Below are positions 30,458-37,951 of a DNA stretch of 57,269 nucleotides, one piece after another. This DNA is from a virus. Position 1 is the first letter of the stretch. The number at the start of each line of letters is the position of its first letter. The stretch spans positions 1-57,269 of the IMG/VR virus record IMGVR_UViG_3300025120_000060, one strand, 5' to 3'. A program made the translations under genes and the position numbers. The notes under the pieces are model-generated. The model searched no databases. It saw only the letters and a list, made by a program, of their open reading frames with translations, and was not told the DNA's origin.

Positions 30458-31960
30458 TTGGATTATAAGAAATTTAGAGAGATATTTAGGGGTTTAGATA
30501 GAGCCTATGGTGTTTACTACAAAGGAGAGACTAAAGAGAATGGTAAATTATCAGGTAAAGCTTATATCAAAAAAGAGCCTTTATTAGAGGAATACTATAG
30601 AAATCACTTGCTAGGACAGGACCCTTCGTTGGGTGTTGTTCCTATCATGGATAATTCCAATTGTTTTTGGGGTTGCTGTGATATCGATAAGTATCCGCTT
30701 GATTTTAAATCAATAATAAAAAAGCTTAGACTAAAGAAAATTCCTATGAGTGTTTGTCGTTCTAAGAGCGGCGGGGCACACCTGTTTCTATTTACAAAGC
30801 AAGCAGTATCAGCAACTGTAATGAGAAACAAGTTGTATGAAATAGCTGCCTTTCTTGGTTACGCTGATTGTGAAATATTTCCTAAGCAGACTGAGATCAA
30901 AGCAGATAGAGGTGACACAGGTAATTTTTTGAATCTGCCTTATCACGGCGGTAATGAAAGTATGCGTTATGCTATGGATGATGAGGGTCAGTCCTTATCA
31001 GTAGAAGAATTTTATAAGCATTATGACAACATAGTGTTAACACCAAAAGAATTAAAAGAGATTAGTGTGGTTGACGAGTCTCGTGAGCTTAAAGACGGAC
31101 CACCTTGTTTAGAAACTTTAATGGCCGAAGGTTTTCCTGAAGGCACAAGAGATAATGCTTTATATCAATATGCTGTTTATGCTAAGAAAGCTTTTCCTGA
31201 TCTCTGGCAGGATAAAATATCAGAGTTTAATCACAAGTACATGGACCCTTCTTTGTCTATTGCGCAAGTCAACAAGACTATTAAGCAACATGAGAAAAAA
31301 GAATATGCATACAAGTGTAAGGATCAACCAATGTGTTCACATTGTAATTCAAACCTATGTAGACAAAGAGTCTATGGGGTTGGTCCTGACTACGAACATA
31401 AGTTTGGTGACTTGACTAAGTATCAGTCAGATGAATCTGTTTGGTTTTTAAATGTAGATGGACAAAGACTCGAGCTCACAACAGACTCTCTCTTTGATCA
31501 GTCAAAGTTTAGAAAAGCGTGTATGGATAACTTAAACGTTTTACCTAACCCTATGAATACAAGGGACTGGACCGCAAGAATTCAACAGTTATTACAGGGT
31601 GTAGAGATCATTGAGATGCCTAAAGAAGTTAGAAAAGAAGGTCGCTTTGAACAGCACCTTGATAACTTTATTAATGATCAAGGTAAAGCAATGAACATAG
31701 AAGAAATATTAATTGGTAAGGCCTGGGCTGAGGAAGGTAAAATATTTTTTAAGATGTCTTCTTTAGAAGAGTACCTACAGAAAAAAAGATTCTTTGAGTT
31801 TACTACAACACAGATGGGTGCAAGGATAAAACAGTTAGGTGGTGGTGACACACGAAAAAGAGTGAGAGGTAAAGTAGTTTACATGTGGTATGTTCCTGAT
31901 CAAAGTGGTGAGGAAGTTAATTTAGATCTACCAAGTATGAAGGAGACAATACCTTTCTAA
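30458..31960 (+). CDS. TOTE-type archaeo-eukaryotic primase
   Basis: 500 residues from a TTG start with AGGAGA upstream. Residues 8-165 match the AEP domain of TOTE primases: EIFRGLDRAYGVYY, CDIDK (DxD metal site at 75-77), CRSKSGGAHLFLF (100-112), EIFPKQ (139-144) and GDTGNFLNLPY. A PriCT-like helical region follows (about 211-285), then a four-cysteine cluster (Cys287, 293, 296, 301). The last residues, KETIPF, resemble the SSB tip. It makes primers for the PolA downstream. It overlaps the helicase start by one base. Confidence 0.85.
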   Translation: MDYKKFREIFRGLDRAYGVYYKGETKENGKLSGKAYIKKEPLLEEYYRNHLLGQDPSLGVVPIMDNSNCFWGCCDIDKYPLDFKSIIKKLRLKKIPMSVCRSKSGGAHLFLFTKQAVSATVMRNKLYEIAAFLGYADCEIFPKQTEIKADRGDTGNFLNLPYHGGNESMRYAMDDEGQSLSVEEFYKHYDNIVLTPKELKEISVVDESRELKDGPPCLETLMAEGFPEGTRDNALYQYAVYAKKAFPDLWQDKISEFNHKYMDPSLSIAQVNKTIKQHEKKEYAYKCKDQPMCSHCNSNLCRQRVYGVGPDYEHKFGDLTKYQSDESVWFLNVDGQRLELTTDSLFDQSKFRKACMDNLNVLPNPMNTRDWTARIQQLLQGVEIIEMPKEVRKEGRFEQHLDNFINDQGKAMNIEEILIGKAWAEEGKIFFKMSSLEEYLQKKRFFEFTTTQMGARIKQLGGGDTRKRVRGKVVYMWYVPDQSGEEVNLDLPSMKETIPF

Positions 31961-35696: not shown

Positions 35697-35848
35697 TGAC
35701 AGACATATCAAGGTACAAGTCTGTAGCTATTAAAAAAGATAGTTACAAAAAACTAAAAGGCATGGCAGATCAAGATTACAGATCAGTGGCAGGCTTTATA
35801 GAATACTTAATAGACAAAGAAATAGAGGAGAGAAGAAATGCCAAGTAA
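35696..35848 (+). CDS. Ribbon-helix-helix-like small DNA-binding protein
   Basis: 50 residues from ATG 35696, chosen because GGGGTGG lies 5-6 bases upstream and the ATG overlaps the previous stop; a start at 35651 would bury the domain. SRYKSVAIKKDSYKKLKGMADQDYRSVAGFIEYLIDKEIEERR has the short strand plus two helices of Arc/MetJ-type repressors. It is the only obvious small regulator in the window and a candidate for binding the ATCCCAAC-type operators. It overlaps the next gene by 11 bases. Confidence 0.65.
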   Translation: MTDISRYKSVAIKKDSYKKLKGMADQDYRSVAGFIEYLIDKEIEERRNAK

Positions 35849-36464
35849 GAAAGAACCAGAAAACATTACAGTCCCAGGCGTGGTGCTACAAGACTGTGTA
35901 ATAACACTCAAAGGTGATTCACCTTTAATATGCAACAAATGGTCAGAGAAGGCCAAACAAGAAATAAGAGATAAGCAGATGAAGATAGCTAAAGCTGCGG
36001 GTAGACAAGCTAAGGATCCTGAAAAATGTTTTAGAGATTCTTTATATCAAATGCCAAATGGTAAAGATTACGGCTTCCCGGCTATTGCTTTTAAAGCTGC
36101 TGCTGTGAATGCTTGTTCTCACATTGATGGTCTTACAAAGGTCTCGGCTCGTGGATCATTTCACATTCCGTGTGACTTAATTAAGATCATTGGTAAACCA
36201 GTCATGAGAGAAGACATGGTGCGTGTTGGTATGGGTGCCGCTGATCTTAGATACAGAGGTGAGTTTACTAAATGGGAAGCTGAAGTTCCTGTAAGATACA
36301 ACGGAAATGCCTGGTCAATTGAACAATTGATTAACGTTTTTAACGTAGCGGGGTTTGCGTCTGGTGTTGGTGAATGGAGACCGCAAAAGAACGGTAACTT
36401 TGGAATGTTCAAAGTAACTAATGTAACAAAAATCGAAAGAAAGAAAGAGGTAAAAGTTGCGTAG
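35838..36464 (+). CDS. Conserved phage protein with GVGEWRP loop
   Basis: 208 residues. Motifs: LKGDSPLICNKWSEKAKQEI, CFRDSLYQMPNGKDYGFPAIAFKAAAVNAC, REDMVRVGMGAADLRYRGEFTKWEAEVPV and GFASGVGEWRPQKNGNFGMFKV. I recognise this as a widespread phage/prophage protein usually paired with the type of gene that follows at 36457. Function not established to my knowledge. The glycine loop GVGEWRPxxxGxFG is reminiscent of RAMP (Cas7/Cas5-type) RNA-binding proteins, but that is a pattern impression only. It overlaps the next gene by 8 bases. Confidence 0.75.
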   Translation: MPSKKEPENITVPGVVLQDCVITLKGDSPLICNKWSEKAKQEIRDKQMKIAKAAGRQAKDPEKCFRDSLYQMPNGKDYGFPAIAFKAAAVNACSHIDGLTKVSARGSFHIPCDLIKIIGKPVMREDMVRVGMGAADLRYRGEFTKWEAEVPVRYNGNAWSIEQLINVFNVAGFASGVGEWRPQKNGNFGMFKVTNVTKIERKKEVKVA

Positions 36465-36966
36465 AAAAATAATACAGTCCTATCAATTTAGGGGCAGCAA
36501 GACAACAAAGTATTCAGTGGACGCTCAAGTTGTTGGAGAAGAACTTGAAGCGATAACTAACAAGCACGGGACACTCAATCCACACGTTGTGGTGAAGGCG
36601 GCAGAAAGAAAGAGTTCGCCGCTTCACAAGTGCTTCACGTGGGATGATGCTTCTGCTGCAGATAAGCATCGGTTGCACGAAGCAAGGATGCTCATTGGTT
36701 CTGTCATGGTCGTCACGCAGCATGTAGACGAACCGGTGCGTGCTTTCCATAGTGTAAAGGTGACTACGTCGAACGGAGATGACGACACATCTGAGCGTAG
36801 TTACGTTCCATTGGATATTGCGTTGAGCGATGATGATTATCGAAGGCAGATCTTAGAACAGGCTGCCAGAGATCTTCATACTTGGAGAAGAAAATATGGG
36901 GAACTAAGAGAACTTCATAAATTTTTCTCTGAGGCTCAGCGTATCATTGATAAGTATGCAGCTTAA
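36457..36966 (+). CDS. Conserved phage protein paired with the 35838 gene
   Basis: 169 residues from a TTG start with AGAGG 6-7 bases upstream. The middle segment NPHVVVKAAERKSSPLHKCFTWDDASAADKHRLHEARMLIGSVMVV matches a frequent phage/prophage pattern (SPLHxxFxWDDxxAAxxxRxxxAR). The C-terminal helix is acidic/basic (RRQILEQAARDLHTWRRKYGELRELHKFF). It typically sits after the 35838-type gene in other phages, as far as I remember. Function unknown. A 10-bp hairpin follows. Confidence 0.7.
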   Translation: MRRKIIQSYQFRGSKTTKYSVDAQVVGEELEAITNKHGTLNPHVVVKAAERKSSPLHKCFTWDDASAADKHRLHEARMLIGSVMVVTQHVDEPVRAFHSVKVTTSNGDDDTSERSYVPLDIALSDDDYRRQILEQAARDLHTWRRKYGELRELHKFFSEAQRIIDKYAA

Positions 36967-36983
36967 CAGGCATACTAGATGTA

Positions 36984-37009
36984 GTGGTGTTGCAAAAACG
37001 CAACACCAC
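36984..37009 (+). terminator. Perfect 10-bp hairpin without T-run
   Basis: GTGGTGTTGC and GCAACACCAC flank the loop AAAAAC, 18 bases after the 36457 gene. The following bases are ACATATAGAGG, so a classic intrinsic terminator is not complete. It may be a processing or 3'-protection stem, or a weak terminator before the array region. Confidence 0.5.
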
Positions 37010-37033: not shown

Positions 37034-37138
37034 ATGAAAAAATATACTTATAAACATATCATAGAAATTTTATTAAAAAAAGAGGGTTGGATTAGAGTTC
37101 CTCTTTATTTACCTACGAGGGTTATCGATGGCAAGTAG
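37034..37138 (+). CDS. 34-residue basic protein
   Basis: MKKYTYKHIIEILLKKEGWIRVPLYLPTRVIDGK. AGGAAGG lies 12 bases upstream. The end overlaps the start of the 37128 gene by 11 bases. It looks like one helix plus a short strand. Small size limits confidence. Confidence 0.4.
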   Translation: MKKYTYKHIIEILLKKEGWIRVPLYLPTRVIDGK

Positions 37139-37334
37139 TGATGAATACTATGAAGAGAAGGTAAACGAGTTACGTGAATTGTATGACCATCTCGAAAATG
37201 CTTTGATAGCAGTCAGTAATGCTTCTCGATGTAAAGGTCGATTGCATTTACAGAAAGATCAACAAGATGAAATGAATACCATGATATTGGACCTTGAAGA
37301 TCTGTTGGCTACAGTCGATGACATAGAACCTTAG
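37128..37334 (+). CDS. 68-residue coiled-coil protein, gene immediately before the array
   Basis: MASSDEYYEEKVNELRELYDHLENALIAVSNASRCKGRLHLQKDQQDEMNTMILDLEDLLATVDDIEP: acidic, almost fully helical with heptads. The last base of its TAG stop is the first base of the pentamer array, so the array would be the 3' end of this gene's transcript. Function unknown. Confidence 0.6.
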   Translation: MASSDEYYEEKVNELRELYDHLENALIAVSNASRCKGRLHLQKDQQDEMNTMILDLEDLLATVDDIEP

Positions 37335-37798
37335 GCAGGCTTAGCGAGGCTAGTTATGGCCCGGTGAGGTGAGTTTTTGGTGAGGCAGGCAAGGTCAGGT
37401 TTTGCGGGGTAAGGTGCGGTGTGGAGCGGTGTGTCAAGGCAGGATAGGTAAGGCGAGCATTGTTCAGGATCGGTTTGATTGCGGCAGGCGTGGTAAGTTA
37501 GGGACAGGACAGGTAGGGCCTGGATTGGTGTGGATTGGCGAGGCAGGCGAGGTGAGGTTTGTTGCGTTTTGATATGTTGAGTTTAGTTGAGGCAGGCGTG
37601 TTGAGGTCGGGTACGTTCTGGTGGTGTAAGGTGTGGTGATACAGGAGTGGTAAGTTTGAGTGAGGTATGGTCGGGTTTGTTGCGGCAGGCGGGGTGAGGT
37701 GCGTTCAGGTGAGGAGTGTTATTGGTATGTTGAGGCAGGCCAGGTATGTCCAGGTTTGGTATGATCCGGACGGGTAAGGCAAGTTAAGGTAAGGCCGG
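37334..37798 (+). repeat. G-rich pentamer array: nine degenerate units of about 50 bases
   Basis: About 465 bases that parse into 5-base words, nearly all with G at position 5 and most with G at position 1, so GG recurs every 5 bases separated by 3 variable bases. GGCAG opens units at 37334, 37384, 37438, 37483, 37542, 37591, 37684 and 37734; a variant TACAG opens one at 37640. Unit lengths are 50, 54, 45, 59, 49, 49, 44, 50 and about 65. The first eight close with a 4-base word (GTGA, TCAA, TTGC, GCGA or TTGA). Occasional 6-base words (TTTTTG, TTATTG) keep the phase. C is scarce outside GGCAGGC. All reading frames contain stops and the period is 5, so it is not coding. It starts at the 37128 stop and ends just before the AAAGGAG of the 37811 gene. 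Likely transcribed as G/U-rich RNA. Function unknown. Confidence 0.9.
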
Positions 37799-37810
37799 AA
37801 AGGAGATAGC

Positions 37811-37951
37811 ATGGAAAAACTCATGACTGGTAGCCGGGCAATGAAAATTGTCAAGGATTACATAATTAAGGATATTGCCGACGAGGACGTTACAGTAGCG
37901 GTTCTTGCGTTGGAGAAATATATAAAAAGTTTGGAAAAGAGTGTTAAGTGA
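37811..37951 (+). CDS. 46-residue protein directly downstream of the array
   Basis: MEKLMTGSRAMKIVKDYIIKDIADEDVTVAVLALEKYIKSLEKSVK. AAAGGAG lies 5-6 bases before the ATG, right where the array ends, so the array forms its 5' leader. The protein looks like a helical bundle or dimeric helix pair. No family recognised. If the array is regulatory, this is its nearest target. Confidence 0.6.
   Translation: MEKLMTGSRAMKIVKDYIIKDIADEDVTVAVLALEKYIKSLEKSVK

What the first reader, a model, noticed from the sequence alone, without database searches (positions are those of the whole stretch)
37334..37798. Nine-unit G-rich pentamer array, unlike any repeat class I know
Seen directly: GG recurs about every 5 bases with 3 variable bases between, over 465 bases. 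Units open with GGCAG at 37334, 37384, 37438, 37483, 37542, 37591, 37684 and 37734, and with TACAG at 37640. They close with a 4-base word, apart from the last. From the first GGCAG to the last is exactly 400 bases, eight units averaging 50. The words between differ from unit to unit, so the architecture is kept while the content is free. It has stops in all frames, no CRISPR-like identical repeats, and sits between two translated small genes in the same orientation.
Basis: seen in the sequence. Interest (0 to 1): 0.97.

Follow-up and report, generated by a model that had tools for sequence, protein, structure and literature searches.

The report
Phage VIPR guide-RNA array
The odd G-rich stretch is an array of nine guide RNAs of a VIPR system, a phage-borne RNA-guided gene-silencing machine related to CRISPR and first reported in 2026; some of its guides read, codon by codon, as conserved motifs of genes carried by other phages.

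Summary
At 37334-37796 there are nine units, each a 4-base word (GGCA, once TACA) followed by 8-11 five-base words G-G/T-Y-N-N. The 5-base periodicity is far above shuffles (z = 7.6). It is not an unknown repeat class. It matches the vrRNAs of VIPR systems (preprint PMC13142463), which consist of GGY/NN pentamers. The gene at 35838-36464 is a Vipr: same PHROG family as the validated SUSP1 Vipr, profile match to PDB 36pp 'SUSP1 Vipr protein' at E = 1.4e-9, predicted fold like CRISPR Csm3/Cas7 subunits. The gene at 36457-36966 is the likely accessory gene, of a different family from SUSP1's. Every relative whose contig spans the place has an array, with guide cassettes gained, lost and reordered. 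Read by the published 1-nt-skip rule, a relatives' guide spells YKQ[IM]GNAVTV, a C5 DNA methyltransferase motif; guide 9 spells HIHLIPRK[KN], a HIT-family motif; guide 7 spells ANRISQFT, from a putative phage structural protein. Expression and silencing are inferred, not shown here. New member of a known kind.

The parts
35838..36464 (+). vipr gene, 208 aa RAMP (Cas7-like) protein with the C-terminal G-loop GVGEWRP..GNFG
   Evidence: phrog_4652 E=4e-23, the family of SUSP1 Vipr (E=1.4e-96); PDB 36pp_D SUSP1 Vipr protein E=1.4e-9 with the profile and 8e-4 with the single sequence; hhalign against SUSP1 family Prob 97%, E=8.7e-11; model fold hits are Csm3/Cas7 subunits
36457..36966 (+). candidate vap (accessory) gene, 169 aa, HKCFTWDD motif family phrog_15946
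   Evidence: adjacent to vipr in the window, L092, L117 and Mycobacterium phage Saal, nearby in L093-L097; different family from SUSP1 vap1 (phrog_5926); no fold match in PDB
37128..37334 (+). small gene, 68 aa, whose stop codon TAG overlaps the first G of the array
   Evidence: the same TAG|GGCAGG junction in L091, L012, L067
37334..37383 (+). guide unit 1: GGCA + pentamers, NN = TT-GA-TA-AT-CC-GA-GA-..-GA
37384..37437 (+). guide unit 2: NN = AA-CA-TT-GG-AA-GC-GT-GC-GT-AA, reads [KN][HQ][FL]G[KN]AVAV[KN]; variant of the guide family that decodes to the C5 methyltransferase motif YKQ[IM]GNAV
   Evidence: no exact viral match for this window version
37438..37482 (+). guide unit 3: NN = TA-AA-GA-TT-CA-TC-TT-..
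37483..37541 (+). guide unit 4 (11 pentamers): NN = GT-AA-AG-CA-CA-AG-CT-TT-GT-TT-GA
37542..37590 (+). guide unit 5: NN = GA-GA-TT-GC-TT-AT-GA-TA-GA; no relative shares it
37591..37639 (+). guide unit 6: NN = GT-GA-CG-AC-CT-GG-AA-GT-GA (V[DE]RTLG[KN]V[DE]); a cassette family found in nearly all relatives
37640..37683 (+). guide unit 7 (opens with TACA): NN = GT-AA-TG-GA-AT-CG-TT-GC; antisense reads A[KN]R[IM]S[HQ][FL]T = ANRISQFT
37684..37733 (+). guide unit 8: NN = GG-GA-GC-CA-GA-GT-..-AT-GA
37734..37796 (+). guide unit 9 (11 pentamers, closed by GGCC): NN = CA-AT-CA-TT-AT-CC-CG-AA-AA-AA-AA; the first nine read as the HIT-family motif HIHLIPRK[KN]
37797..37805 (+). GGAAAGGAG, Shine-Dalgarno of the next gene, directly abutting the array
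37811..37951 (+). small downstream gene (46 aa, MEKLMTGSRAMKIVKDY..)
   Evidence: read; homologous downstream genes in L091 and L083

Best explanation
This is the vrRNA (guide) array of a VIPR system carried by a marine-type podovirus. The array is copied as RNA from the plus strand. Several Vipr (RAMP) subunits coat it, one per five bases, gripping the GGY (here G-G/T-Y) framework and presenting each NN pair. Nine guides are laid end to end; the 4-base GGCA words shift the register and mark where a guide begins. A loaded complex finds double-stranded DNA whose sequence matches NN-x-NN-x-NN, the skipped base falling on codon wobble positions, and blocks transcription of genes of competing phages, such as a methyltransferase, a HIT-family protein and a structural protein. 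Shown here: array architecture, Vipr identity and fold, conservation of NN over framework, cassette shuffling between relatives, and in-frame matches of guides to motifs of phage genes. Inferred from the published SUSP1 work (PMC13142463): transcription, RNP assembly, DNA binding, silencing. Own inference: the role of GGCA as guide punctuation and the benefit to this phage.
For: Vipr: same PHROG family as SUSP1 Vipr, PDB 36pp match, hhalign, shared GVG[ED]WRP G-loop, fold search with the 50 best hits all from CRISPR type III or VII complexes, E 6e-6 to 2.5e-4. Array: GGYNN profile, 8-11 pentamers per unit against 9-16 in the preprint; SUSP1's own intergenic vrRNAs show the same pentamers. Synteny: arrays beside vipr in every close relative whose contig spans the site and in distant Vipr carriers (L092, L116, L117, Gordonia phage Ecliptus, Mycobacterium phage Saal, Cyanophage Cy-LDV1). 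NN conserved, framework drifting, p=2.8e-7; two methyltransferase guides in different registers have 10 of 18 framework and 0 of 12 NN differences.
Against: No RNA data: transcription, unit processing and binding are untested. Units lack the structured 3' tail of SUSP1 vrRNAs, and the array has no structure beyond shuffles (z = +0.88). The window's own guide 2 had no exact match in viral contigs and only two chance-like matches in genomes. Guides 1, 3, 4, 5 and 8 have no assigned target, and guide 6 hits are mixed. A 14-nt core of guide 9 is mostly noise in bacterial genomes (10 hits, 4 in the reversed control, 1 HIT gene). No target was found in the fetched parts of related pelagiphages.
Confidence: 0.9

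Rival explanations
1. The array is an RNA platform for an oligomeric RNA-binding protein that reads a 5-base period, as TRAP does with its GAG/UAG-NN repeats, and regulates the downstream gene; the NN content carries no target information.
For: 5-base period and units near 50 bases resemble TRAP sites (own knowledge); the array lies between a stop codon and a Shine-Dalgarno in one operon.
Against: NN pairs are conserved while the framework drifts; cassettes are gained, lost and reordered; guides decode to protein motifs; the adjacent gene is a Vipr.
Confidence: 0.04
2. A DNA-level element: G-rich non-template strand forming R-loops or two-tetrad G-quadruplexes, acting as a replication origin or recombination hotspot, with cassette shuffling as by-product.
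For: GC skew up to about 0.66 in the array; GG every five bases; modular rearrangement between relatives.
Against: The period-5 GGYNN frame, the 4-base register words, the NN conservation and the linkage to vipr in phages of unrelated hosts are not predicted by strand composition alone.
Confidence: 0.03
3. A degenerate, non-functional remnant of a VIPR array.
For: Some words have 4 or 6 bases or T/A in place of G; the window's guide 2 lacks an exact match.
Against: vipr and the accessory gene are intact; array present in all spanning relatives and NN under constraint.
Confidence: 0.03

Closest known systems
VIPR system of Escherichia phage SUSP1 (type II; PMC13142463)
   Same: Homologous Vipr; GGY/NN pentamer RNAs next to vipr; two-gene locus in a phage; targets readable by the 1-nt-skip rule with the skip on codon wobble positions.
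   Different: Nine guides fused end to end and punctuated by GGCA instead of about 100-nt vrRNAs with a structured 3' tail; position 2 is often T; accessory gene of another family (phrog_15946 instead of phrog_5926); array inside an operon two genes downstream of the accessory gene.
VIPR-like loci of Mycobacterium phage Saal, Gordonia phage Ecliptus, Cyanophage Cy-LDV1 (annotated 'hypothetical')
   Same: Vipr homologue plus contiguous GGCA-punctuated pentamer arrays; Saal shares the accessory family.
   Different: Framework there is mostly GGC; array upstream or downstream of vipr; guides different.
Class 1 CRISPR-Cas (type III Csm3/Cas7 backbone)
   Same: RAMP backbone fold; multi-guide array; cassette turnover.
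   Different: No identical repeats, no cas1/cas2 or other cas genes seen beside it, guide read in interrupted NN pairs.

Membership tests
VIPR system | Vipr protein: single-RRM RAMP homologue of about 20 kDa with G-loop | tested here: met
VIPR system | Tandem pentamer RNA with GGY alternating with variable NN, 9-16 repeats | tested here: met
   G 95%, G 75%/T 21%, Y 86%, N, N; 8-11 pentamers per unit (slightly short, T allowed at position 2)
VIPR system | Minimal locus: vipr plus one accessory gene with a non-coding array beside them, in a phage | tested here: met
VIPR system | NN pairs specify DNA targets through a 1-nt skip | tested here: met
   at sequence level only; strongest for a guide carried by relatives and for guide 9; most window guides have no assigned target
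VIPR system | vrRNA transcribed and co-purifying with Vipr; silencing of target genes | not testable with these tools
   needs RNA sequencing, pull-down and reporter assays
VIPR type II (SUSP1/P. fulva) | Invariable structured 3' tail after each repeat tract, and vap1 | tested here: not met
   units follow each other directly; fold z = +0.88; accessory gene in phrog_15946, not phrog_5926
CRISPR array | Identical direct repeats separating spacers | tested here: not met
   only the 4-6 bases GGCAGG recur; no tandem repeat reported here
TRAP-type RNA site | GAG/UAG triplets spaced by 2-3 bases | tested here: not met
   consensus is G-K-Y-N-N; positions 4-5 vary between words

The most novel reading that the evidence does not exclude
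Guides of this VIPR clade are aimed at codons of highly conserved protein motifs (C5 methyltransferase YKQ[IM]GNAV, HIT-family HIHLIPR). With the skip on the wobble base, one guide then covers a whole protein family across competing phages, and such cassettes are independently acquired and exchanged between phages as a movable, broad-spectrum silencing repertoire on one GGCA-punctuated RNA.
Probability: 0.5. Interest if true: 0.88.

Novelty: new member of a known kind. Interest (0 to 1): 0.75.

Why it matters
It places the newly reported VIPR mechanism in a podovirus related to pelagiphages, with at least 17 natural variants of one array. That gives a ready evolutionary data set: which bases are framework, which are information, how guides are gained, lost and reordered, and what they hit. 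The decoded guides suggest that phages silence rivals at codons of highly conserved motifs, which is hard to escape by synonymous change, and this can be tested in E. coli reporters. It also explains unannotated G-rich intergenic arrays in other phages, including well-studied mycobacteriophages.

Tried and rejected
Rfam: no match. BLASTN of the array in phage records: only a non-significant hit (E = 2), which happens to fall in the VIPR intergenic region of Escherichia phage SME50. Tandem repeats: none reported at the array. RNA folding: no better than shuffles. Local target search in fetched loci and in parts of HTVC023P, HTVC027P, 023Pt_psg01 and DSL-LC04: nothing above chance at skip 1. Exact 20-nt guide 2: none in viral contigs, two chance-like matches in genomes. 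Guide 6 hits: two in one SPFH-like lipoprotein gene, the rest unrelated; not claimed as a target. 14-nt HIT core and the guide 7 pattern in 296 genomes of one phylum: mostly noise and none, respectively. Accessory protein fold: no PDB match.

Full report
Observation. The array at 37334-37796 is exactly as described. GG dinucleotides recur at lag 5 (36 pairs against 12.5 +/- 3.1 in shuffles, z = 7.6) and at multiples of 5, and no other place in the window comes near. It parses into nine units, each opened by a 4-base word (GGCA eight times, TACA once) and followed by 8-11 words of five bases with the profile G / G or T / C or T / N / N; a few words have six bases. The last unit ends in GGCC and abuts the Shine-Dalgarno GGAAAGGAG of the next small gene. 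The first G of the array is the last base of the TAG stop of the gene at 37128-37334; relatives keep the same junction.

Relatives. The window is a virus record of 57,269 bases. Its terminase is 61-65% identical to those of Pelagibacter phages HTVC023P and HTVC027P, phage 023Pt_psg01 and phage DSL-LC04. Close relatives in IMG/VR (terminase 92-96%, Vipr 84-96% identical) carry an array at the same place wherever the contig spans it. Distant carriers of the 35838 gene also have GGCA-punctuated pentamer arrays next to it: L092, L116, L117, Gordonia phage Ecliptus, Mycobacterium phage Saal and Cyanophage Cy-LDV1.

Identification. A literature search led to the VIPR preprint PMC13142463: a RAMP protein, Vipr, uses RNAs made of GGY/NN pentamers to recognise DNA through the NN pairs with a one-base skip, silencing competing mobile elements. 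The gene at 35838-36464 is a Vipr. It belongs to phrog_4652 (E = 4e-23), as does SUSP1's gene beside the DNA ligase (E = 1.4e-96). The family profile finds PDB 36pp chain D, 'SUSP1 Vipr protein', at E = 1.4e-9, the single sequence at 8e-4, and hhalign gives Prob 97%, E = 8.7e-11. The aligned core is the G-loop region (GVG[ED]WRP...FG). The AlphaFold model (pLDDT 76.5) has as its 50 best PDB matches chains of CRISPR type III and VII complexes, which I take to be Csm3/Cas7-type subunits (TM about 0.5). SUSP1's own intergenic regions show the same pentamers, there followed by a tail. The neighbour at 36457-36966 (phrog_15946, CFTWDD motif) accompanies vipr in distant phages and is the likely accessory gene; its predicted fold (pLDDT 87) has no PDB match.

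What is conserved. Among 25 groups of homologous units from 18 arrays, framework positions 2 and 3 vary in 67 of 484 columns, mostly G/T and C/T, while NN positions vary in 21 of 484 (p = 2.8e-7; column counts are not fully independent). Arrays differ by gain, loss and reordering of whole units: for example window I-G-R-M-a-A-D-B-F, L083 G-D-A-E-F-C, L012 S-A-E-C-F-H-D-B. This is what a guide array predicts and the opposite of 'content is free'.

Targets. Read as NN-x-NN-x, guides can be translated with the skip at the codon wobble position. Guide family G (window unit 2 and relatives) contains CA-AT/TT-GG-AA-GC-GT; the version in L109 and L089 is TA-AA-CA-AT-GG-AA-GC-GT-AC-GT, that is YKQ[IM]GNAVTV, which I recognise as a conserved C-terminal motif of C5 DNA methyltransferases (own knowledge). 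Of 125 matches, 114 lie in sense with the skip on the wobble base; nearly all read YKQ[IM]GNAV in methyltransferase-like ORFs, a few (YNHIGKAV) lie in another gene, and 23 continue with TV as in the full guide. Two guides for this motif sit in different registers and differ at 10 of 18 framework but 0 of 12 NN positions. The window's own version differs (LGNAVAV[KN]) and has no exact viral match. Guide 9 reads HIHLIPRK[KN]; 4 of 5 viral matches are HIT-family active-site-like motifs, in sense with wobble skips, and the guide variants RYK and RKK/N both occur in the matched genes. Guide 7 in antisense reads ANRISQFT, found in a putative structural protein of three related loci and in one unrelated locus. 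Other guides have no assigned target. Gene names for targets rest on motif recognition and were not confirmed with a family library.

How it most likely works. Plus-strand transcription of the operon yields an RNA with nine guides; Vipr subunits coat it, one per pentamer; GGCA words reset the register so each unit acts as a guide; the complex silences genes of competing phages. The middle steps rest on published SUSP1 experiments, not on data from this phage, and whether the RNA is cut at GGCA is unknown.

Type and novelty. The system meets the defining features of VIPR testable here but not the structured tail or accessory gene of type II. The preprint mentions seven types and staggered arrays; its supplement could not be read here, so this may belong to a described type. 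I therefore call it a new member of a known kind. What seems new here is the GGCA punctuation across hosts, the direct evidence that NN is the conserved part, the cassette turnover, and guides that read as highly conserved protein motifs.

Noticed in passing
36983-37008: A perfect hairpin GTGGTGTTGC-AAAAAC-GCAACACCAC follows the accessory gene; relatives L091 and L083 keep a hairpin there with changed sequence on both arms (GTGGTGCTG..CAGCACCAC, GCGGTGCTG..CAGCACCGC), hinting at a conserved RNA structure.
   Followed up: no
L093 3734-5059; L095 4956-6631; L097 3524-5023: More distant Vipr plus CFTWDD accessory genes without an obvious GG-rich pentamer array nearby; they may use another framework consensus.
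   Followed up: partly
L121 3582-3840; L120 4612-4880; L122 4575-4810: Unannotated GGCA-punctuated pentamer arrays beside hypothetical Vipr genes in Mycobacterium phage Saal, Gordonia phage Ecliptus and Cyanophage Cy-LDV1.
   Followed up: partly
L119 4854-4906 and 6120-6161: Escherichia phage tootiki has vrRNA-like stretches annotated only as repeat_region on both sides of its vipr and vap genes.
   Followed up: no
30458-31960: Predicted primase matching the AEP-TOTE domain (PF22548, E=5e-13), next to a UvrD-type helicase and a DNA polymerase.
   Followed up: no
L125 7092-7724; L127 3107-4075: Guide 6 (V[DE]RTLG[KN]V) matches in frame in homologous SPFH-like lipoprotein genes of two viral contigs; could be chance.
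   Followed up: partly
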